A stretch of DNA of 37,157 nt, from contig CASBRB010000150.1 of NCBI GenBank assembly GCA_949127975.1, forward strand, positions 1 to 37,157. The letters are read 5' to 3'. Below the pieces are notes generated by a model. The model ran no database searches. It worked only from the letters and a program-made list of their open reading frames with translations, and had not been told where the DNA came from. Shown here piece by piece: positions 4,198 through 13,544 of the stretch; positions within the stretch are counted from its first letter, which is position 1; each line of letters opens with the position of its first letter. Source of the stretch: Oscillatoriales cyanobacterium PMM_0019 (GTDB lineage: Bacteria; Cyanobacteriota; Cyanobacteriia; Cyanobacteriales; CASBRB01). Position numbers and translations under genes: made by a program.

Positions 4198-4974
4198 ATG
4201 CTAGCTAAACGAATCTTACCTTGCCTGGACGTGAAAGCGGGGCGGGTTGTTAAAGGCGTCAACTTTGTGAATCTGCGGGATGCAGGCGATCCTGTGGAAC
4301 TGGCACAGGTATACAATGACGCGGGAGCTGATGAGTTGGTGTTTTTGGATATTACTGCGACTCACGAAGACCGAAACACCATTATTGATGTGGTATATCG
4401 CACTGCTGAGCAGGTGTTTATCCCTCTAACGGTGGGTGGCGGGATTCAATCCTTAGAAAATATTAAACATTTGTTAAGAGCGGGAGCGGATAAAGTCAGT
4501 ATCAACTCGGCGGCAGTTCGCGATCCTGACTTGATTAACCGGGCGAGTTCGCGGTTTGGGAATCAGTGTATTGTGGTAGCGATCGATGCCCGACGGCGGC
4601 AAGACGCGGCTAATCCTGGCTGGGATGTTTACGTGCGGGGAGGGCGAGAAAATACAGGTTTGGATGCGATAGCTTGGGCTAAAGAAGTTGAGCAACGGGG
4701 ATGTGGTGAATTGCTCGTTACCAGTATGGATGCTGATGGCACCCAGGCTGGGTATGATTTAGAACTCACCCGCACTATTGCCGAACTCGTGGAAATCCCA
4801 GTGATTGCCTCTGGGGGTGCAGGTAACTGCTCACACATTTATCAGGCTCTCACCGCAGGCAAAGCAGAAGCGGCGCTTTTGGCTTCTTTACTGCATTACG
4901 GGCAACTCACTGTTGCTCAAATTAAACAACACTTGGCGGATCATCAGGTGCCAGTGCGGCTGCTGGAGCCTTAA
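4198..4974 (+). CDS. hisF: Imidazole glycerol phosphate synthase subunit HisF
   Basis: HisF is the cyclase half of imidazole glycerol phosphate synthase. It takes ammonia from HisH and converts PRFAR to IGP and AICAR in histidine synthesis. The 258-residue (beta/alpha)8 protein is full length. The catalytic Asp11 is in [16 protein letters not shown] and the second catalytic Asp is in VVAIDARR. The phosphate sites are VGGGIQ and ASGGAG. The ATG at 4198 gives the conserved [11 protein letters not shown] start. The other his genes are elsewhere, so it is a scattered single gene. A MITE-like repeat follows closely after its stop. Confidence 0.98.
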
Positions 4975-4996
4975 GCACATATATAGTAGGAGTCAT

Positions 4997-5067
4997 CTAT
5001 ATATAGCGGGTTCGTAGGGGCAAACCCCCTGTGGTTGCCCCTATATATGCCAGTGTGCGTAAGTCCT
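4997..5067 (+). repeat. MITE-like repeat with right terminal motif
   Basis: The core GGTTCGTAGGGGCAA, spacer, TTGCCCCTATATATGCC is nearly identical to the 1177-1250 copy. It ends in TGCGTAAGTCCT (5056-5067), the reverse complement of the AGGACTTACGCA terminal motif. The left terminus is unclear; CTTAAGCAC overlapping the hisF stop may be its remnant. Confidence 0.7.
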
Positions 5068-5216
5068 GTGGATTTGAGATTGAAAGAATGTCCTAAGCAT
5101 CTTGACTGTTGCTATATATGAGGTTAACCCTTTGGCAAGAAGCAACGTTTGCCAAGTAGCATTAATTCGTCATATTATGTAATATTAGAGTGAGCGAGTG
5201 TTACAGTTTGTAAATT

Positions 5217-5426
5217 ATGTTGATTGCTATTCTAATTTTTGATGTGGCGCTGGTTGCTTGGTCGCTGCACCTGATGCAGGAAGCCTTCGCTCAGCAGGAG
5301 TTTTCGTTAATGCTAGCTGGGATGTTGGTGGCAATGTCAGCGGCGGCGATGCTTGTGGTATATTTCCTCATGGGCAGCTATATTGGTTTTTTAGCGCAGA
5401 TGGCTCAACACCCCTACCCGTTCTAA
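5217..5426 (+). CDS. Small two-helix membrane protein, unknown function
   Basis: A 69-residue protein that is almost wholly hydrophobic. The first membrane segment is about residues 2-20 (LIAILIFDVALVAWSLHLM), followed by a short loop EAFAQQEFS and a second segment about residues 31-58 (MLAGMLVAMSAAAMLVVYFL). The C-terminus is short and polar (QMAQHPYPF). The composition and clean helix-loop-helix layout make it a plausible real gene. No family is recognised. It sits just upstream of tRNA-Ala and may share its transcript, although no promoter was identified. Confidence 0.65.
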   Translation: MLIAILIFDVALVAWSLHLMQEAFAQQEFSLMLAGMLVAMSAAAMLVVYFLMGSYIGFLAQMAQHPYPF

Positions 5427-5490
5427 GTAGAATTTTGTAGACTACTTGACAAACTGCTGGCAGTTGAGGGACAATAACAAAGGTTCGCAA

Positions 5491-5563
5491 GGGGTTATAG
5501 CTCAGTTGGTAGAGCACCTCAATGGCATTGAGGGGGTCTGCGGTTCGAATCCGCATAGCTCCA
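5491..5563 (+). tRNA. tRNA-Ala (anticodon GGC)
   Basis: A full cloverleaf is present: acceptor GGGGTTA paired with TAGCTCC (two G-T wobbles), D-arm GCTC/GAGC, anticodon stem CCTCA/TGAGG with a 7-nt loop carrying GGC at 5524-5526, variable loop GGGTC, and T-arm TGCGG/CCGCA with loop TTCGAAT. The discriminator base is A and the terminal CCA is not encoded, as is common in cyanobacteria. A transposon-like terminus starts 8 bp downstream. Confidence 0.97.
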
Positions 5564-5570
5564 TTTGTTG

Positions 5571-5692
5571 TGTACATTAAATAATTATTGTCACATTTAA
5601 AGAATTATTGTCCAATTTGACCATGTTATGGGATATAAGTGACGCATTTTCAAGTTTTTCAGGCATTAATTTAGTTTTAAATAATTCTTGTC
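5571..5692. mobile_element. Terminus of a Tn7-like, probably type V-K CAST, transposon
   Basis: Eight bases after tRNA-Ala the sequence reads TGTACA (5571-5576), followed by three copies of a TnsB-site-like repeat: TTAAATAATTATTGTC (5577-5592), TTTAAAGAATTATTGTC (5596-5612) and TTTTAAATAATTCTTGTC (5675-5692). Type V-K CRISPR-associated transposon ends also begin TGTACA and carry several AATTAATGTC-like TnsB sites, and these elements home to the 3' side of tRNA genes. A GTT at 5505-5507 inside the tRNA lies 63 bp before the terminus, which fits the GTN PAM and 60-66 bp offset known for ShCAST. No second TGTACA end was found before glpX. The remainder to 5912 holds no gene and no further repeat that I can see. 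Assignment to V-K rather than another Tn7-like branch is inference. Confidence 0.7.
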
Positions 5693-5912
5693 CAGAGTTG
5701 AAACCAGTTGAGTATTTTTTTCTTCTGCCTCCGGCTTCCGACTCTCCTGCTCGCCGGATAATAGCCCTAGGTTAAGTTATTATACTGGATTAGCGGAGAT
5801 GCTCATCTACCGATAGTAGTAATTCGGGCTTGATAAGCAAAGAATATTAAGTCTCTTGCTTTTTCTTGTAAAGTCCCGTGATTGGACTGTACCTCAAATT
5901 CAATACTAATTC

Positions 5913-6983
5913 TCAATCTTGATTATGGAGAAACCTGGCAGCTGACTCAAACCCTTTGGTAATCGATGAAGCCCATTGAAGGTACTCTTCGAGATCCAAA
6001 TTTAATACCTCCTCTCGATGAAAAGTTACTCCTGGCAGTTTTTCTGTCGGGCAACCTTGATTCAGGGCTTTGAGGCGTCGTGCATAACTGCTAGAAAGTA
6101 CGATCGCTTGCAAAAAATCGGTATTTTTTAACAAACGCAATACTTTAAATTGGGCAAGATGTTGTTCGCGTAAAGCCCAGTCGGAGCGCAGATCGAATTC
6201 AGTGGCGGCATAGGAAGATGTCAGTAGATCGAAGTAAGTCAGTTCGCATTGCGGCTTTTTATTTTCCTCAAAAATATAACATACGGCTTCTTTAGGTAGT
6301 TCTTCACTCAACACAAAAACGCCCATCTGGTAATGCTCGAATTTCTTGATTACTTCGGCTTCAAACTGCTCGACAACGGCTAACTTATCTGGAGCGTATT
6401 TCCAATATTTGCAATAGCCACTACGCCACTGGGGGAAGTTGAAGGTTTGGGAAACCGGAAAGAAACCCATTTCATATTCTTTTTCTGGAGAAGAATAGTC
6501 GATCGTCGGTTGTCCTGGTTGGCGCAGCTTTTTGTCCGTCTTCAAACTAAAAATTGCATCTCGGCGAGGGGTGTTGGGATAGTCGAGGGCTAGTTTGATA
6601 TCGAGATAAAACCAACGTTCTTCGGGTGGGTGGCGCTTGCCGAGATCGATCGATACGGGTTTGCCGGATAATAAAGCCATTAACAAGCTGGTTAGGCGTT
6701 GCTGTCCGTCGAGAATCAGGTATTTGGGAATTGGCGTTTCATTGATAACGACGCTTTCTACTAGGCGGGGTTTGAACTTGATTTTGGGATTGCCCTGCTT
6801 GAGAAACATAACTACTCCGATTGGGAAGCCCAAAGAAACGCTAGCCAGAGCGCGAGAAATCCGGTCTTCGTTCCAACACCAGGAGCGTTGGAAGTCTACC
6901 AGTTGAATTTTACCTTGTTGAGTATCCCGTAGCAGGTCTAAAAGCGGAATTTTGGTGATGTCAAAGGTGGAGATAGAGTTCAT
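5913..6983 (-). CDS. DUF262 (GmrSD N-terminal-like) protein, C-terminally truncated
   Basis: The 356-residue product has the DUF262 ParB-like nucleotide-binding domain. Near the N-terminus is LVDFQRSWCWNEDRISRALA, and near residue 95 is the diagnostic LILDGQQRLTSLLMALLSGK. DUF262 occurs in the GmrSD modification-dependent restriction enzyme and related defence proteins, where it is thought to hydrolyse NTP. Proteins of this group usually run to 550-600 residues and often end in a DUF1524 HNH nuclease. Here the frame stops after ESAARFLHNQD, and no HNH motif follows in the roughly 340 bp before the transposon-like terminus. The gene therefore looks truncated and the nuclease half is missing. 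It lies within the island as cargo or as an older neighbour. Confidence 0.82.
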   Translation of the reverse strand: MNSISTFDITKIPLLDLLRDTQQGKIQLVDFQRSWCWNEDRISRALASVSLGFPIGVVMFLKQGNPKIKFKPRLVESVVINETPIPKYLILDGQQRLTSLLMALLSGKPVSIDLGKRHPPEERWFYLDIKLALDYPNTPRRDAIFSLKTDKKLRQPGQPTIDYSSPEKEYEMGFFPVSQTFNFPQWRSGYCKYWKYAPDKLAVVEQFEAEVIKKFEHYQMGVFVLSEELPKEAVCYIFEENKKPQCELTYFDLLTSSYAATEFDLRSDWALREQHLAQFKVLRLLKNTDFLQAIVLSSSYARRLKALNQGCPTEKLPGVTFHREEVLNLDLEEYLQWASSITKGFESAARFLHNQD

Positions 6984-7115
6984 GCTATTACCTAGAGCTG
7001 TTGATTCTGACTAACAGATTTTGTCAATCTTACCAACAGCTTACATAAGCTAATTCCCCAAAGTTATGATTTATTATCATTGCTTTTTCCGGTCTAATTG
7101 AGTAAAATTTTGGTT

Positions 7116-7433
7116 TCAAAAATTCCCCTGATTAGATGGACAAAGCAGAACTTGTAAAAACTCTGGGAACTCGTCAAACCGCTCTAATATTAGATCTGCT
7201 AGTGTCAAGTACCATTTGTGGTAAGCTTGCGGTGACTGATGAGTGCGACCTTGACTAAACCAACTATGGCAGGTGCGGATATCGACCCAACAAATTTCAG
7301 CAATGAACTCACGGCTGACATCCCACTTGGCGCTAAACTTTTGATGATCTATTTGGGGCTGGGCATAGATATATGCTCTTAACCTTGTAAATTGCTCGTC
7401 GTTTAGGGGTCGGGGATATGAATAGTTACTCAT
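7116..7433 (-). CDS. Small WDVSRE-type protein, putative DNA-binding
   Basis: About 105 residues. The core FSAKWDVSREFIAEICWVDI, followed by RTCHSWFSQG, resembles a short helix-turn-helix in which an AEICWVD segment is followed by a recognition-like TCHSWFSQG helix. Small cyanobacterial proteins with this layout are common but have no known function. An ATG at 7454 is in frame, but the ATG at 7433 has GGAAGC a few bases upstream, so the shorter start is chosen. The upstream neighbour at 7461-7628 is a paralogue of the first half, and the two probably form one leftward unit. Confidence 0.6.
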   Translation of the reverse strand: MSNYSYPRPLNDEQFTRLRAYIYAQPQIDHQKFSAKWDVSREFIAEICWVDIRTCHSWFSQGRTHQSPQAYHKWYLTLADLILERFDEFPEFLQVLLCPSNQGNF

Positions 7434-7460
7434 TATTTTGCTTCCAACAGACATTCAATT

Positions 7461-7628
7461 TCATCCACAGATAAAAGCCAGTTCCTCTCGCGACACGTCC
7501 CAATATTTCAGAAACTCATCGAGTTCCATGAGATGTTGTTTTAGGGGCTGGAGATACAGAGCAAACGCATCCCAGTGTCTCTGAGTAGGAGTTTTTGGGG
7601 CAATAGCCATAGCTACGCTCATTGCCAT
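7461..7628 (-). CDS. Truncated paralogue of the WDVSRE protein
   Basis: About 55 residues when begun at the ATG at 7628; a longer frame reaches 7700 but would run through an inverted repeat. The segment FLKYWDVSREELAFICG matches FSAKWDVSREFIAEICWVD of the downstream neighbour and then stops where that neighbour continues into its putative recognition helix. Shifting frame by one base gives DEIECLLEAK before a stop, so a frameshift near 7464 is possible. It is best read as a degenerate duplicate of the 7116-7433 gene. Confidence 0.5.
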   Translation of the reverse strand: MAMSVAMAIAPKTPTQRHWDAFALYLQPLKQHLMELDEFLKYWDVSREELAFICG

Positions 7629-7671
7629 TTGGCAAGAAAGGGAACTATCGTATTTTAGTTGAGTTGAAGGG

Positions 7672-7720
7672 TATAGGTTCGGTTTTCCAGGAAGCTGCAT
7701 TGGTGAAAACCGAACCTATA
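7672..7720. repeat. 16-bp perfect inverted repeat
   Basis: The left arm TATAGGTTCGGTTTTC (7672-7687) and right arm GAAAACCGAACCTATA (7705-7720) pair perfectly around a 17-bp spacer. It lies just upstream of the small WDVSRE genes on their coding strand. There is no U-rich tail, so it does not look like a simple terminator. It could be an operator, a small mobile-element relic or a structured leader. Confidence 0.75.
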
Positions 7721-7851
7721 ATACCAATTTCATTAAATGTTGCTACAGATTCTTCTTCCCCTGTCGGCTCTCCCGTACAAAGGCGTGATAAGTTTTACTT
7801 ATCATTAGAAGAAAGGTTGAGCAGAGCAAAACCCAAGGTTTTCACAGTAAC

Positions 7852-7880
7852 AGGTTGGTTTTCGTACCTCAACCCAACCT
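7852..7880. repeat. Degenerate inverted copy of the window-start repeat
   Basis: AGGTTGGTTTTCGTACCTCA followed by ACCCAACCT is close to the reverse complement of the repeat at positions 1-27. Its ends (AGGTTGG/CCAACCT) can pair as a hairpin. Confidence 0.5.
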
Positions 7881-7954
7881 ATTTCGACATAACGAATAAG
7901 CCTCAAAGTATTATCCTTACTTGGTTCCATGAGTTCTATAGTTTCCTTTTCTTG

Positions 7955-7986
7955 GGCAGTTATTGCGAATATTCGCAATAACTGCC
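7955..7986. repeat. Perfect 32-bp palindrome
   Basis: GGCAGTTATTGCGAAT (7955-7970) is followed directly by its exact reverse complement (7971-7986), with no spacer. The wider gap 7629-8113 has no convincing gene. It holds the inverted repeat at 7672, the degenerate repeat at 7852 and this palindrome. The frame open on the plus strand across 7622-7981 runs through all three and is not protein-like. Confidence 0.9.
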
Positions 7987-8113
7987 AATATTCTCATTAA
8001 GTGTTCTAATTGACACATTATTGACGAATGAGGAATTAGCTGTAACCAATACTAGAAAAGGATTTGAACAGGTTCTCTTACGTCGAACTCAGGTCTGGAA
8101 GAGTTTCAATGAT

Positions 8114-8899
8114 TTAGGACTGAACTGAAAACTCTTCTGGATCAATACCGTGATTGACCCAGCGAATCGCTTCGCGGGCAGAAACGATATCCGGTGGTAC
8201 TCGTAAAACGTGAATGTAACCCGTGCTGGGACAAGTCATTTTTAGCAAATGGACGGGTTCGCTAGAAATTTCATCTCGCCAGATTGCCCTCTCTCCTCCC
8301 TCGTCCCAATCTTGCCCGTCGTAAACTTTGAGTGTGAAAGGTTCGAGATAATTAGCAATCCGGAGCAATGTATATTCTGCCCAAGAGTGGATCTCTTCCA
8401 TTGCTAACTCCTGGCAGAGTCGGGCATAACCAATATTTTGAATCAGGATTCGCCTCAATTCTGCATTTTGTTCTTCTAACAACCATTGGGACTGCCATTG
8501 CTGGTGCGGCAGTTTGCCCCAGTTTTCTGGTAATATGACCCCGTGATAGAAATAAGATCCAGAACCATCTGCAAACTCAATGGCTGGCGTTCCTGGTTCG
8601 GCATGGAGTTGTTTCTGCTCGTTTCGTGAAATTCTGATCGGGCGATCGCAAACTGCAACAAAACCCGAAAACTCATAAATCCAACCACAATGTCGAACAA
8701 TTGAGGAGTAGGCATCCCATAGTCTTGAATCGTGCGGAAAACCCACGGAAATACATAGTTCGTCCCAGCTAGCAGCAATAGCCTCTGTTTCTAGGGTTAA
8801 CAAATAACTACCTCTTCCTAAAGTTAGAATAAATTGATTATTCAAAACAGCCAATCTTTTTTTTAAGCAGATTTTCCCTAAACTGTGTAAAGTATTCAT
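8114..8899 (-). CDS. DUF6745-like protein, core and C-terminal part of copy B (frameshifted)
   Basis: This 261-residue frame holds the core and C-terminus of a DUF6745-like protein, a poorly characterised family in cyanobacteria and actinobacteria. Visible landmarks are RHCGWIYEFSGFVAVCDRPI, LHAEPGTPAIEFADGSG, YFYHGVILPENWGKLP and, at the end, LLKMTCPSTGYIHVLRVPPD with IRWVNHGIDPEEF. The N-terminal domain lies in the preceding frame (about 8866-9350). The two frames overlap at 8838-8899, and the T8 run at 8858-8865 (A8 on the coding strand) is the obvious slip point. One base gained or lost there joins both parts. Whether this is a mutation, an assembly error or programmed slippage cannot be told from sequence. 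The function is unknown. Confidence 0.72.
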   Translation of the reverse strand: MNTLHSLGKICLKKRLAVLNNQFILTLGRGSYLLTLETEAIAASWDELCISVGFPHDSRLWDAYSSIVRHCGWIYEFSGFVAVCDRPIRISRNEQKQLHAEPGTPAIEFADGSGSYFYHGVILPENWGKLPHQQWQSQWLLEEQNAELRRILIQNIGYARLCQELAMEEIHSWAEYTLLRIANYLEPFTLKVYDGQDWDEGGERAIWRDEISSEPVHLLKMTCPSTGYIHVLRVPPDIVSAREAIRWVNHGIDPEEFSVQS

Positions 8900-10112
8900 C
8901 CTGTATGTGATAAATATCTTTTAGTATCCTTGAGCTTGAACTTATACATCGGGCATATTTTTCAGGGAACTCTTTCATAATAGGGCTATAAAGAATAGGA
9001 TTGGTATCCAATTTATTCGAGATAGACATTTCTGTTATTGAACGAAAGGATTTCCCCAAAGGATTCCAAAACACCAATCTATGAATTGCTTGTCTTGTGG
9101 TTCTATATTGATTTTGATTTTGAAAATCAGGGTCTTGCTCAGCAGCAACAGCACTAGAATAGAAACGAATTTCTGGTGCTGACTGATTAAAAGCAGAGTA
9201 TGCCTTATTGATAGCTTCCCTTGCTTTGTCTTGATCAATACGGCTGTGTAGCAGGATGGCTTCCCATTTTTGTTGATATAACGGAGACAATGTTTGATAT
9301 TCGGTCAACAATATTTCAAGCAGGTTTTCAAGTTCTGTAATACTCCTTTCAAGAGATTCTAATTCCATTTCATCAATTAAGGAATCAATAACCAATATTT
9401 TATTTTTCCGCAAGGAACGGACTGCTTCTATGCTCAATGCCTTACGAATTCGTTCGGGACCAATGACCTGAATTAATATTTTCTTCAATTCTTCATCCTC
9501 CTCTCCCAATAACCATTGAGGTTGCCATTCGTCGCTTGGTAGCTTTCCCCATTTTTCTGGAAGGGCAACTCCATGATAGGCATAAATTCCAAAGCCATCT
9601 GAATACTCAATGGCTGAGGTTCCTGGTTCGGCATGGAAGCGTTGACAAGTTTCTTTTTGCAGTAGAGAATCAGGTGTCGCAGGTGTAAACAAACCACTTA
9701 ACTCGTCAGAAAAACCTTCGTAATCTTCGGTTGCGATCCTGATGGGGCGATCGCAAACAATCACACCGCCGTGGTTAAATTCATAAATCCAACCACAGTG
9801 CTGAAGAACCGGAAAATAAGTTTCATATAATTTTGAGTCATACCACAAACCTAAATCCATGCATAAGTCACACCAGATAATGTCAGTTAGGTGATCATCA
9901 ATGCAAAAGCTCGGATTATAGGTGTCGGCTATATTTTTTGAATTTAGTTGCCGTTTACCACGAAAATATTTTTCTTCAAAGATACCCCGCAATGCTCTCA
10001 CCGTATTCATTTGGAATATGTCAATTGTAAAATTTCTAGTATCTTTTTGATCTAGCAATCTTGCTTCGTAATCCAAAGACCTAGACAATGACCAAAAAAG
10101 CATAGCTCCCAA
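8838..10112 (-). CDS. DUF6745-like fusion: core of copy A joined to N-terminus of copy B
   Basis: The frame starts inside copy A at a shift near 10094-10099 (A6, T6 on the coding strand). It first reads the copy A core: LQHCGWIYEFNHGGVIVCDR, RFHAEPGTSAIEYSDGFG and YAYHGVALPEKWGKLP. Where copy A should continue to its C-terminal LRVPPD/WVNHGIDPEEF part, it passes after IEAVRSLRKNKILVIDSLID into a charged linker and then a second N-terminal domain (LSPLYQQKWEAILLHSRIDQ, PEIRFYSSAVAAEQDPDF). That matches LAPLYQRKWEGLFLQTGRID and PEIRFYASPDAAQQDTW of copy A. It ends after the poly-A slip point with KKKIGCFE. The array order is therefore N-core-N-core-C, two units fused with the first C-terminus lost. 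Confidence 0.68.
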   Translation of the reverse strand: MGAMLFWSLSRSLDYEARLLDQKDTRNFTIDIFQMNTVRALRGIFEEKYFRGKRQLNSKNIADTYNPSFCIDDHLTDIIWCDLCMDLGLWYDSKLYETYFPVLQHCGWIYEFNHGGVIVCDRPIRIATEDYEGFSDELSGLFTPATPDSLLQKETCQRFHAEPGTSAIEYSDGFGIYAYHGVALPEKWGKLPSDEWQPQWLLGEEDEELKKILIQVIGPERIRKALSIEAVRSLRKNKILVIDSLIDEMELESLERSITELENLLEILLTEYQTLSPLYQQKWEAILLHSRIDQDKAREAINKAYSAFNQSAPEIRFYSSAVAAEQDPDFQNQNQYRTTRQAIHRLVFWNPLGKSFRSITEMSISNKLDTNPILYSPIMKEFPEKYARCISSSSRILKDIYHIQDEYFTQFRENLLKKKIGCFE

Positions 10113-10513
10113 AATAATGATTGGGCTGACGGAGCTTGATTGATGACTTGGAATAGGAAAATTAAATTATCTAGATAAACTCGCCGATACACTTCTTCTG
10201 GGGGAAACATGTGATCATTCCAGCTAATAACATCTGGCAGCAAAGTAGAAGGACTTTGTTGATACCATGTATCTTGCTGAGCGGCATCAGGACTGGCATA
10301 AAAGCGAATTTCTGGTAATGGCAGATTCAACACGGAATAAACTGCATTAATGGCCTCTTTTGCCTTGCCTTGGTCAATTCTCCCTGTCTGCAAGAAAAGC
10401 CCTTCCCATTTCCTTTGGTACAAAGGAGCTAAGTCATTGCATGTAGACCATAATTTTTCTAGTTGTTCAGCTCGTTTGGATACATTATCAGTCATGTAAT
10501 CTCTCCCAGCCAC
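10052..10513 (-). CDS. DUF6745-like protein, N-terminal part of copy A (frameshifted)
   Basis: The 153-residue product begins MAGRDYMTDNVSKRAEQLEK and contains the N-terminal region of the family (LAPLYQRKWEGLFLQTGRID, QGKAKEAINAVYSVLNLPLP, EIRFYASPDAAQQ). After SLFWELCFFG the frame runs to a stop, while the neighbouring frame carries on with the core domain from 10112. The six-base homopolymer at 10094-10099 is the likely shift site. The ATG at 10513 is the first in frame; an internal ATG seven codons in (MTDNVSK) is an equally good start. The gene heads the DUF6745-like array and follows the small gene at 10620-10934 by about 105 bp. Confidence 0.65.
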   Translation of the reverse strand: MAGRDYMTDNVSKRAEQLEKLWSTCNDLAPLYQRKWEGLFLQTGRIDQGKAKEAINAVYSVLNLPLPEIRFYASPDAAQQDTWYQQSPSTLLPDVISWNDHMFPPEEVYRRVYLDNLIFLFQVINQAPSAQSLFWELCFFGHCLGLWITKQDC

Positions 10514-10619
10514 TTCGTAGTATCAGGTCTGCGTCGAAAACCTGTTGGTGGATCAAAAGATAAAACTCAAATTGCAGGTCAGAAAAATGTCGAATCAAGG
10601 CAAAATTTCGTCAACTCTT

Positions 10620-10934
10620 TCAATCACAAACATATCGTGACCTTTCTGTTTCATCCCTTCGTACTGCTTGGAATTCATATTCTCGCTGAATCCGAACCTC
10701 CCAATTTCCCTGCGGAACTTGAATGGGCTTGTGTTCTTCGTGAACTAAGGTTGCAAACTCAGAATGCACTTCTAGATAGAGCCTACCGTTCACTCCGTAC
10801 AAATCTGCCGAACCATCGTAAATAGAATGTTTGTGCCCTGTCACTTCTCCTACAGCCAGAGTTAAATGGGGAAGTTTTAGCTGCCCCAGCCTAACCTCAG
10901 AAATAGGAACTAAAATGACATCCCCTTGACGAAT
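10620..10934 (-). pseudogene. Small conserved protein lacking a normal start codon
   Basis: An open frame runs from 10946 to the stop at 10620. From ATT at 10934 it reads IRQGDVILVPISEVRLGQLK, LPHLTLAVGEVTGHKHSIYD, then LYLEVHSEFATLVHEEHKPI and PQGNWEVRIQREYEF. Similar small proteins in cyanobacteria begin with a QGDVILVPI stretch after an ATG, and I recall them beside DUF6745-like genes. Here an in-frame TAA at 10947-10949 is followed by TTA CGT AAA CCA ATT, with no ATG, GTG or TTG before the conserved region. The first usable conventional start is GTG at 10844, which would drop about 30 conserved residues. Either the start was lost by mutation, or ATT is used. The function is unknown. Confidence 0.6.
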
Positions 10935-11027
10935 TGGTTTACGTAATTAATATAAAAGTGCAAGATAAGCAAAAAAAAAAGTGCGGGCGCTCCCTTGGTG
11001 TGGAATGAACCTAAACAGCGGGTTAGT

Positions 11028-11192
11028 ATGTCGATCATGCCAACGGGTATCAGAAATTTTGACGCGATCGCTCGGAAGCATGGTCTATCAAAATCCGAGC
11101 TGGTTGAGCGGATCGTTCGCGGCTACTTTATATTGACCCCGCTAGCTTCACCTTCAGAGTCGCCGGGGGAAACTGAGGTCGATCGCACCTAA
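11028..11192 (+). CDS. Ribbon-helix-helix (CopG/Arc-like) protein, orphan
   Basis: Begun at the ATG at 11028 the product is about 54 residues. A TTG at 10995 would add NEPKQRVSMS, and since KQRVSMSIM could form the DNA-contacting beta strand of the fold, that longer start cannot be excluded. The helix pair FDAIARKHGLSKSELVERIV is typical of ribbon-helix-helix repressors, many of which are antitoxins. No toxin frame is adjacent, and the flanks hold only repeats and transposase remnants. It may be an autoregulator left from a mobile element. Confidence 0.6.
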   Translation: MSIMPTGIRNFDAIARKHGLSKSELVERIVRGYFILTPLASPSESPGETEVDRT

Positions 11193-11221
11193 TATTTTTT
11201 GGCGCACCCGTTGTGCCCGGT

Positions 11222-11430
11222 TTTAGCCGCAACTCTTTATCCTAGCACAAAAATTTACACTTTTCCGAGATAACGGAAATTCCCGATCGGTTATTTGGCG
11301 GGAGGTGGGTGGTTCGTTCTAACAAAAATCCACGCATTGATATGTGGTTTTTTTGACCTAGCGATCGCGCCAAAAATTCCCTAAATCAGCCAACCTTGAA
11401 TTTAGCCGCAACTCTTTATCCTAGCACAAA
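11222..11430. repeat. 30-bp exact direct repeat flanking 149 bp
   Basis: The 30 bases at 11222-11251, beginning TTTAGCCGCAACTCTTTATC, recur exactly at 11401-11430. A third, interrupted relative occurs at about 11485-11515 (TTTTAGCC, an insert, then AACTCTTTATAGGC), at the end of the IS transposase remnant. The 149 bp between the exact copies contain a GCGATCGC motif and a terminator-like hairpin but no gene. The 11193-11498 stretch has no other feature that I can see. Confidence 0.85.
11330..11354 (+). terminator. Possible rho-independent terminator
   Basis: CCAC (11330-11333) and GTGG (11344-11347) pair around a 10-nt loop and are followed by seven T. Flanking A and T bases extend the stem with one mismatch. 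The stem is short, so this is a weak candidate for ending the transcript of the ribbon-helix-helix gene. Confidence 0.3.
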
Positions 11431-11498
11431 GCTTAATGCAGCGGCTATTCCCGTATCACCTAAACTTGCTCCATGTGTAGCAGGTTTTAGCCACCGAT

Positions 11499-11797
11499 TC
11501 AACAAAACTCTTTATAGGCTTTCATTCTGTCAATAATGTCAGCCGCTTTACCCCATTTCAAGTCATGACGAGCCTGTTTAAACCAAGATTTTTGCTCTTA
11601 AACTTTATCGAAAGCAGCTTCACTAAAACGATTTAAATGTTCAGTAACATGGTAAAAGTCTAATAACTGCTCGGTTTTATGAATCACGCCTAATCTTTCT
11701 AAGAGTGGTGGGATATGTTTCCAGATCCATTCAGCTCCATCAGCTATAAGTAAAATCTGAGCGGCGTAGGTAATACCCAACGAAACTAAGTGCATTT
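11499..11797 (-). pseudogene. IS transposase fragment (DGAEWIW type, ISKra4/ISLre2-like)
   Basis: Reading leftward, LGITYAAQILLIADGAEWIW, KHIPPLLERLGV and LLDFYHVTEHLNRFSEAAFD give a transposase catalytic segment: an Asp in the DGAEWIW block and DFYH-x-x-EHL. After AAFDKV there is an in-frame TAA at 11598-11600, beyond which the frame continues with EQKSWFKQARHDLKWGKAAD and IIDRMKAYKEFC. Both termini of the protein are missing. The family name is from memory of similar motifs and is uncertain. The fragment abuts the TnsB remnant at about 11795-11800, in the same direction. Confidence 0.65.
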
Positions 11798-12230
11798 CCT
11801 TCTTTATTGATTTTGTCAAAAATAGATTCAATTAAACCACCTGCCTGGGGAAAAGCACGCAAACGCCGTAGAAAATTTAACTGTAGTGAAATTTGTTTTA
11901 AATGTTCAGACTTAAATTATTTTGCGCGGTCTGTGAGCATATATTCAAAAATTCCAAAAATCTCCCAATTTTTGTCAAGATTGTACTCTGTACCGTAATG
12001 CTTTGGTAAAATTACATGACGCAGAGCTAAACCAACTTCATGGGAACCAGCAGGTTCAAAACCTAGGTAGAAACCCGTGACACAACCAGAGTAACTATCC
12101 ATTACCAAAGTAATATATGGACGACCGATAACTTTCTTGTCTTCTTCGTCAACTTTCTGACGATGGGGGGATGGGCGTAGTCCGAATACATTATATCTCT
12201 TCACGAAACTTAACACAGTGCTGAGTTGAG
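11798..12230 (-). pseudogene. TnsB-like transposase remnant (CAST type V-K-like)
   Basis: Translated leftward it reads VDEEDKKVIGRPYITLVMDS, YSGCVTGFYLGFEPAGSHEV, GLALRHVILPKHYGTEYNLD and KNWEIFG...YMLTDRAK. After an in-frame TAA it continues FKSEHLKQISLQLNFLRRLR and GGLIESIFDKINKE. This follows ShCAST TnsB block by block (SRPWLTTVIDTYSRCIMGIN, LALRHAILPKRYGSEYKLH, FYTDGGKDFRSNHLSQIG, GGVVERPFKTLN). The second catalytic Asp (LTD) and the Glu (GGLIE) survive, whereas the region of the first Asp is disrupted, apparently by a frameshift near 12175. The N-terminal and C-terminal domains are gone; an IS fragment takes over at about 11797. The gene points toward tRNA-Ala, the opposite of what a simple LE-proximal insertion there would give. 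Confidence 0.82.
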
Positions 12231-12323
12231 ACTTGACTGCAAGCGTATACCGTCTCTGATAGACTTAAAGACTGGTATTGCAGATGGTAAAGCCAGTATC
12301 AAGCAGTTGGGAGGAAGCACTTC

Positions 12324-13361
12324 GTGGAAAATACACTAGGTTTAGAGATTATTGAGGTTGTGGAGCAAGCGGCGATCGCTTCTGCTCGGTGGATGGGCAA
12401 AGGCGAAAAGAACACGGCAGACCATGTAGCTGTGGAAGCTATGCGGGAGCGGATGAATAAAATCTATATGCGGGGGCGGATAGTCATCGGTGAAGGAGAG
12501 CGGGATGAAGCCCCGATGCTTTACATCGGGGAGGAAGTCGGCATCTGCACTCGTGAAGACGCCAAAGCATATTGCAACCCAGATGAATTAGTTGAGATTG
12601 ACATTGCTGTTGACCCCTGCGAAGGCACTAACCTAGTTGCCTACGGTCAAAACGGTTCAATGGCAGTGTTAGCGATTTCTGAGAAAGGAGGCTTGTTTGC
12701 CGCGCCTGACTTCTATATGAAGAAGTTAGCCGCTCCACCCGCAGCCAAAAATCATATCGATATTAATAAATCTGCCACCGAAAACCTGAAGATTATCTCC
12801 GAGTGCATGAACCGCTCTGTTGAGGAACTGGTGGTAGTGGTGATGGATCGCCCTCGTCACACAGAACTGATTCGGGAAATTCGCCAAGCTGGGGCAAGAG
12901 TGCGTCTGATCAGTGATGGTGACGTTTCGGCTGCCATCTCCTGCGCCTTCTCTGGTAGTAATATTCACGTTCTGATGGGAATTGGGGCAGCACCAGAAGG
13001 CGTGATTTCAGCGGCAGCTATGCGTTGTTTAGGCGGACACTTCCAAGGACAGCTGATTTACGATCCAGAAGTCGTTAAAACTGGGTTAATTGGCGAAAGC
13101 AAAGAAGGTAATATTGCTCGGCTTAAAGAAATGGGAATTACCGATCCTGACCGAGTTTATAACGCCGAAGAGCTAGCTTCTGGTAAAACAGTGTTATTTG
13201 CTGCTTGCGGGATCACCCCAGGAACACTAATGGAAGGCGTACGGTTCTTTAAAGGTGGCGCACGCACTCAAAGTCTGGTAATTTCTAACCAGTCACAAAC
13301 AGCACGATTTGTTGATACTATTCACATGTTTGATGAACCCAAGACGATCCAGTTGAGGTAG
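12324..13361 (+). CDS. glpX: Class II fructose-1,6-/sedoheptulose-1,7-bisphosphatase
   Basis: The bifunctional FBPase/SBPase of cyanobacteria dephosphorylates fructose-1,6-bisphosphate and sedoheptulose-1,7-bisphosphate in the Calvin cycle and gluconeogenesis. The 345-residue product is full length. Metal-binding motifs are [17 protein letters not shown] and [20 protein letters not shown]. The sugar-phosphate region includes [23 protein letters not shown] and [20 protein letters not shown]. The start is GTG at 12324, with GGGAGGA about 9 bases upstream and the expected [21 protein letters not shown]-terminus. It lies about 90 bp from the TnsB remnant, so its upstream region has been rearranged. 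hemA follows on the same strand, an adjacency I believe is common in cyanobacteria. Confidence 0.97.
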
Positions 13362-13392: not shown

Positions 13393-13440
13393 TTAGCCTT
13401 TGTGATTGGGGAAGAGGCGATTTTTGATTATTTTTATTGA

Positions 13441-13510
13441 TGACCAATGACTAATGACCAATGACCAATGACCAATGACCAATGACCAATGACCAATGAC
13501 CAATGACCAA
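13441..13510 (+). repeat. STRR heptamer array (TGACCAA)x10
   Basis: Ten tandem heptamers; unit 2 is TGACTAA and the other nine are perfect. TGACCAA is the complement of TTGGTCA, one of the short tandemly repeated repetitive heptamers first described in Calothrix and relatives. It occupies most of the glpX-hemA spacer. Exact copy number may be unreliable in an assembly. Confidence 0.95.
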
Positions 13511-13544
13511 TGAAATTTAGTGATTAGCAATTAACAAATAGCAA

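What the first reader, a model, noticed from the sequence alone, without database searches (positions are those of the whole stretch)
5491..5692. CAST-like transposon terminus 8 bp downstream of tRNA-Ala(GGC)
TGTACA plus three AATTATTGTC-type repeats start just after a tRNA gene. Type V-K CRISPR-associated transposons have TGTACA ends with multiple TnsB sites and home to tRNA genes. A GTT in the tRNA (5505-5507) is 63 bp from the terminus, which fits the PAM and offset of ShCAST. The crRNA target would be the anticodon arm of tRNA-Ala(GGC).
Basis: partly seen in the sequence, partly recalled or inferred. Interest (0 to 1): 0.85.

Follow-up and report, generated by a model that had tools for sequence, protein, structure and literature searches.

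The report
Decayed CRISPR-guided transposon beside tRNA-Ala

Summary
tRNA-Ala(GGC) (5491-5563) is followed 7 bp later by TGTACA (5571) and three TnsB-site repeats (5576, 5596, 5676). The same end is the tRNA-proximal left end (LE) of V-K CASTs: 21 of 391 genomes of the order carry it exactly (reversed control 0), mostly 1-70 bp after tRNA genes, often with a full Cas12k gene just inside. Scytonema sp. NIES-4073 has a Cas12k-bearing CAST at the same tRNA-Ala(GGC): LE 85% identical over 139 bp, PAM GTA, and an anchor spacer matching 16 of 17 nt of the protospacer that the window carries at 5512-5528. In the window only a Cas12k C-terminal scrap (5803-5922, -) and a TnsB catalytic-core fragment with a stop (about 11800-12153, -; 80% identical to a CAST TnsB) survive. 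CRISPR array, anchor unit, TnsC, TniQ and right end were not found. So this is a dead V-K CAST. One correction: the PAM is GTA 5509-5511 (59 nt from the end), not GTT 5505-5507. The relic joins hisF-tRNA-Ala to glpX-hemA, blocks that are separate in relatives; whether the CAST caused that is open.

The parts
5491..5563 (+). tRNA-Ala(GGC), the attachment-site gene
   Evidence: ARAGORN; Rfam RF00005
5509..5511 (+). GTA, inferred PAM of the anchor protospacer (59 nt from the LE)
   Evidence: same position as the PAM of anchor protospacers in relatives
5512..5528 (+). inferred anchor protospacer GAGCACCTCAATGGCAT, inside the tRNA
   Evidence: anchor spacer of the NIES-4073 element matches it at 16 of 17 positions
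5571..5709 (+). left end (LE) of a type V-K CAST, starting TGTACA
   Evidence: 85% identical over 139 bp to the LE of L161 and L119; 76-82% to L068, L118, L112
5576..5592 (+). TnsB-site-like repeat 1
5596..5612 (+). TnsB-site-like repeat 2
5676..5692 (+). TnsB-site-like repeat 3
5803..5922 (-). remnant of the cas12k 3' end (last ~39 codons and the stop)
   Evidence: 57% over 30 aa to G362 Cas12k, E 5e-5; only hit in 500 kb with controls; 76% DNA identity over 113 bp to NIES-4073, E 1e-15
11800..12153 (-). tnsB fragment (catalytic core, one in-frame stop); TnsB-encoding side of the element
   Evidence: ShTnsB 3e-17; PADLOC TnsB V-K 2.7e-22; 80% over 128 aa to G362 TnsB; 83% DNA over 353 bp
5913..6983 (-). 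GmrSD_N-domain gene, possible old cargo
   Evidence: Pfam PF03235 1e-19; membership in the transposon not shown
8114..10513 (-). duplicated DUF6745-type genes, possible old cargo
   Evidence: Pfam PF20530, repeats D4/D6; membership in the transposon not shown
12206..12323 (+). native upstream region of glpX; the relic ends before it
   Evidence: aligned with G025 from 12206 on

Best explanation
A type V-K CAST once inserted just downstream of tRNA-Ala(GGC). Cas12k with a short anchor crRNA read the anticodon-arm region of the tRNA gene (PAM GTA) and the transposase placed the left end 59 nt further on, leaving the tRNA intact. The element has since died: about 1.25 kb with the fourth TnsB site, anchor unit, CRISPR array and tracrRNA region is gone, as are most of cas12k and tnsB, and tnsC, tniQ and the right end; other genes, perhaps old cargo, fill the space. 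Shown: the LE, the tRNA, the Cas12k and TnsB scraps with their order and orientation, and a Cas12k-bearing homologue at the same tRNA. Inferred: that this copy itself was RNA-guided, that both scraps come from one element, and the order of decay.
For: LE homology over 139 bp to CASTs with full Cas12k. LE of this type 1-70 bp after tRNA genes in 17 of 27 other copies. Named CAST at the same tRNA-Ala(GGC) in Scytonema sp. NIES-4073, with Cas12k and an anchor spacer matching 16 of 17 nt of the window's protospacer. Cas12k 3' end remnant at the right side and orientation. TnsB V-K fragment. PAM-LE distance 59 nt lies in the published 46-82 nt (PMC9938897).
Against: No CRISPR array, tracrRNA, anchor unit, TnsC, TniQ or right end found in the window, so RNA guidance of this copy rests on relatives. 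No empty site from a close relative was available. The TnsB fragment lies 6 kb from the LE with unrelated genes between, so it could come from another element.
Confidence: 0.93

Rival explanations
1. The end belongs to a small TnsB/TnsC-only Tn7-like element without Cas12k, of the kind found on Trichormus variabilis plasmids, inserted without RNA guidance.
For: Those elements have very similar termini (TGTACATTAAAGAATTATTTGTC; 88-89% over 45-50 bp) and a related TnsB (58-59% to the window fragment).
Against: The window keeps a cas12k 3' end at DNA level. Its LE matches Cas12k-bearing elements over 139 bp but the plasmid elements only over the terminal 45 bp, and it sits at a tRNA used by a Cas12k element.
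Confidence: 0.04
2. The relic is a composite: the LE and Cas12k scrap come from a CAST at tRNA-Ala(GGC), the TnsB scrap from a second CAST near glpX, and recombination between the two joined the hisF and glpX blocks.
For: hisF-tRNA-Ala and glpX-hemA are separate conserved blocks in relatives, far apart in single-contig genomes. In G020 a tRNA-Val(GAC) followed by a CAST-like end lies 2.6 kb upstream of glpX.
Against: The best homologues of both scraps among the loci compared come from one genome (G362), as expected for one element. Any other rearrangement, or a misjoin in this 512-contig draft, explains the junction equally well.
Confidence: 0.2
3. The repeats are ordinary AT-rich sequence after a tRNA (terminator or chance).
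For: The region is AT-rich and the repeats are short.
Against: Exact recurrence in 21 of 391 genomes with reversed control 0; paired inward-facing copies bound elements with cas12k, tnsC and tnsB; absent after tRNA-Ala(GGC) in relatives.
Confidence: 0.01

Closest known systems
Type V-K CAST of Scytonema sp. NIES-4073 (NZ_AP018268.1, locus L161)
   Same: Same tRNA-Ala(GGC) with identical protospacer, same LE (85% over 139 bp), cas12k 3' end 76% identical in DNA, same orientation.
   Different: Full-length Cas12k, CRISPR array and anchor unit present; LE 2 bp after the tRNA (7 in the window); a fourth TnsB site present.
   Same: Closest TnsB found (80% aa over 128 aa) and a close Cas12k 3' end; same LE type 2 bp after a tRNA-Ala.
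   Different: Sits at tRNA-Ala(CGC), not GGC; full Cas12k open frame.
ShCAST-type V-K CASTs (Scytonema hofmanni; literature PMC9938897, PMC11406308)
   Same: TGTACA terminus, tRNA-proximal LE, anchor targeting of tRNA genes with GTN PAM; TnsB fragment homologous to ShTnsB.
   Different: Different end repeats (window TTTAAAkAATTATTGTC); the window element lacks working genes.
TnsB/TnsC elements of Trichormus variabilis ATCC 29413 plasmids A and C (L003, L004)
   Same: Terminal repeats and TnsB related.
   Different: No cas12k annotated in the element; on plasmids; no tRNA reported beside the end.

Membership tests
Type V-K CAST | Left end with TGTACA terminus and several TnsB-site repeats shared with Cas12k-bearing elements | tested here: met
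[quoted passage not shown]
   literature architecture
Type V-K CAST | GTN PAM and anchor protospacer 46-82 nt from the LE | tested here: met
   GTA 5509-5511, 59 nt; protospacer confirmed through the NIES-4073 anchor spacer
Type V-K CAST | cas12k | tested here: inconclusive
   only the last ~39 codons remain; no intact cas12k in the genome
Type V-K CAST | tnsB of the V-K kind | tested here: inconclusive
   catalytic-core fragment with one stop, V-K by PADLOC
Type V-K CAST | tnsC | tested here: not met
   no convincing tnsC match in the window relic; lost, in a decayed element
Type V-K CAST | tniQ | not tested
   no tniQ query was run; no candidate among the ORFs of the relic
Type V-K CAST | CRISPR array, tracrRNA and anchor repeat-spacer unit | tested here: not met
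   no anchor spacer in the relic or genome; Rfam only finds the tRNA
Type V-K CAST | Right end and target-site duplication | tested here: not met
   no further end motif between 5700 and glpX
TnsB/TnsC-only Tn7-like element | No Cas12k in the element | tested here: not met
   cas12k 3'-end homology present

The most novel reading that the evidence does not exclude
The dead CAST marks, and may have caused, a large chromosomal rearrangement: recombination between two V-K elements at different tRNA genes, or an intramolecular replicative transposition, joined the hisF-tRNA-Ala block to the glpX-hemA block, so that CAST relics act as breakpoints of genome order in cyanobacteria.
Probability: 0.2. 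Interest if true: 0.5.

Novelty: new member of a known kind. Interest (0 to 1): 0.35.

Why it matters
It shows that an attachment tRNA plus a left end are enough to recognise an extinct V-K CAST from raw sequence. It documents tRNA-Ala(GGC), with a specified protospacer, as a site carrying this LE in four genomes (the window, Scytonema NIES-4073, Scytonema RU_4_4, Nostoc FACHB-110). Solo left ends beside tRNA genes form a fossil record of RNA-guided insertions that annotation can miss. If the link to the synteny break holds, it would connect V-K transposition with genome rearrangement.

Tried and rejected
A scan of named genomes for the predicted anchor unit TTGAAAGGAGCRCCTCAATGGCA found nothing; later the NIES-4073 anchor proved to differ by one base in the spacer. 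Searches for an anchor spacer inside the relic and in the genome were negative. Rfam on 5300-12400 found only the tRNA. The weak Cas12k match on contig C173 was first taken for noise, since the model also rings in two control genomes, but it lies beside tRNA-Pro(CGG) with an end-like flank and is probably a second relic. I first called the tRNA-proximal end RE from memory; the literature calls it LE (PMC9938897) and the report follows that. One scan used a wrong protospacer for L161 and the window because of a motif slip; one search repeats it correctly. A plasmid search with the DUF6745 protein gave only distant matches. Pfam does not recognise the remnants at 11500-11800 and 10600-10900.

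Full report
WHAT IS THERE. tRNA-Ala(GGC) lies at 5491-5563. After seven bases TGTACA begins (5571), followed by three copies of TTTAAA(T/G)AATTATTGTC with at most one mismatch at 5576, 5596 and 5676. Elsewhere in the window, both strands, only two poorer places (2 and 3 mismatches) come close, and the reversed-sequence control has none. The 22-base end occurs once in the genome.

THE END IS A V-K CAST LEFT END. The degenerate end pattern occurs exactly in 21 of 391 genomes of the order and never when read backwards. Of 27 further copies, 17 lie 1-70 bp downstream of a tRNA gene: Ala(CGC), Pro(CGG), Phe(GAA), Cys(GCA) or Val(GAC). In many of them a full Cas12k gene (NCBIfam NF038191, over the cut-off) reads toward the end from about 1-1.5 kb inside. 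G329 shows the complete order tRNA-Pro, end, cas12k, tnsC, tnsB, opposite end. This is the published architecture: the tRNA-proximal end is called LE, an anchor spacer of about 17 nt matches the tRNA beside a GTN PAM, and PAM and LE are 46-82 nt apart (PMC9938897; PMC11406308). I recovered such anchor units directly: 17-18 nt identical to the tRNA right after GTA, mostly preceded by a repeat tail ending TTGAAAG, in elements at tRNA-Phe, -Cys, -Pro and -Ala(CGC).

SAME SITE, INTACT COUSIN. A scan of named genomes for this LE beside tRNA-Ala(GGC) returned Scytonema sp. NIES-4073, Scytonema sp. RU_4_4 and Nostoc sp. FACHB-110. NIES-4073 has a full-length Cas12k (PADLOC Cas12k 3.6e-245) inside an LE 85% identical to the window over 139 bp. 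It also has a CRISPR array and an anchor unit, TTTGAAAG-GAGCACTTCAATGGCAT, that matches the tRNA-Ala(GGC) protospacer at 16 of 17 positions, with PAM GTA and 54 nt to the LE. The same protospacer in the window is 5512-5528, PAM GTA 5509-5511, 59 nt to the LE. Whether the other two hits hold whole elements was not resolved: no Cas12k or TnsB match was found in the 8 kb fetched, of which RU_4_4 shows only some 360 bases inside the end.

WHAT IS LEFT OF THE BODY. At 5803-5922, minus strand, the last ~39 codons of cas12k survive. The match is 57% over 30 aa to G362 Cas12k, the only hit in 500 kb of window, control and relative DNA, and 76% at DNA level over 113 bp to NIES-4073 cas12k (E 1e-15). 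LE homology stops at 5709, inside what is the fourth TnsB site of relatives. The cas12k 3' end lies about 235 bp from the LE terminus, against about 1,490 bp in NIES-4073, so some 1.25 kb is missing: the fourth site, anchor unit, CRISPR array and the expected tracrRNA region. At about 11800-12153, minus strand, a tnsB fragment spans the catalytic core with one in-frame stop: ShTnsB 3e-17, PADLOC TnsB V-K 2.7e-22, 80% over 128 aa to TnsB of G362. It is the only TnsB match in the genome. Between the scraps lie a GmrSD_N gene and duplicated DUF6745 genes, perhaps old cargo. No right end was found.

A SYNTENY BREAK. In relatives hisF and tRNA-Ala(GGC), often with the small ORF between, form a conserved block, and glpX-hemA another. 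In single-contig genomes the two lie far apart (for example G047 346 kb, G039 165 kb). In the window they meet across the relic: native glpX upstream sequence resumes at 12206, 53 bp after the tnsB fragment. The tRNA-Ala(GGC) 3' flanks printed for relatives do not carry this end. Whether the CAST caused the join is not shown. G020 has a CAST-like end after tRNA-Val, 2.6 kb upstream of glpX, which makes a two-element scenario possible. The window is one whole contig of a 512-contig draft, so a misjoin cannot be excluded.

VERDICT. A dead type V-K CAST at tRNA-Ala(GGC). It is a new, decayed member of a known kind; in terms of function nothing active is left here except possibly the LE itself.

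Noticed in passing
G000 contig C173 (L157: 6446-6550 +, tRNA-Pro c9160-9233): Probable second CAST relic in the same genome: tRNA-Pro(CGG) followed by TGTCGAGTGTCACATTATTTGTC, an end-like sequence of the ShCAST kind, and 2.6 kb inside a Cas12k N-terminal scrap (60% over 35 aa, E 6e-6) in the right orientation.
   Followed up: partly
L107 and L109 (G326, G329): Two different CAST-type ends stacked in series after one tRNA-Pro(CGG), and in G329 a second Cas12k just beyond the far end of the first element: tRNA genes act as stacking sites for V-K elements.
   Followed up: no
L112, L068, L161 anchor units: Anchor spacers carry 1-3 mismatches to their own tRNA target (L161 one, L112 two, L068 three), while L119 is exact: decay, or tolerated mismatches.
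   Followed up: no
L003 6006-10000 and L004 6002-10000 (T. variabilis plasmids A and C): Compact elements with the same kind of termini but only TnsB, a TniB/TnsC-like ATPase and an unknown 180-aa protein; no Cas12k annotated.
   Followed up: partly
L074 (G045) 4430-9412: A 5-kb decayed V-K element with both ends, 11-12 bp after tRNA-Phe(GAA), cas12k broken into pieces, anchor spacer still exact over 17 nt.
   Followed up: partly
L071 and L075 (G038, G055): Solo ends of the ShCAST kind directly after tRNA-Ala(TGC) and tRNA-Ala(CGC); in L071 the neighbouring ORFs look like ordinary genes with no CAST gene recognised.
   Followed up: no
window 7765-7885: A 122-bp stretch 88% identical to one on contig C173 of the same genome, near the probable second relic: a dispersed repeat.
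   Followed up: no
window 11222-11251 and 11401-11430: An exact 30-bp direct repeat 179 bp apart in a non-coding-looking stretch; origin unknown.
   Followed up: no
window 13440-13530: Tandem 7-bp repeats (ATGACCA) between glpX and hemA.
   Followed up: no
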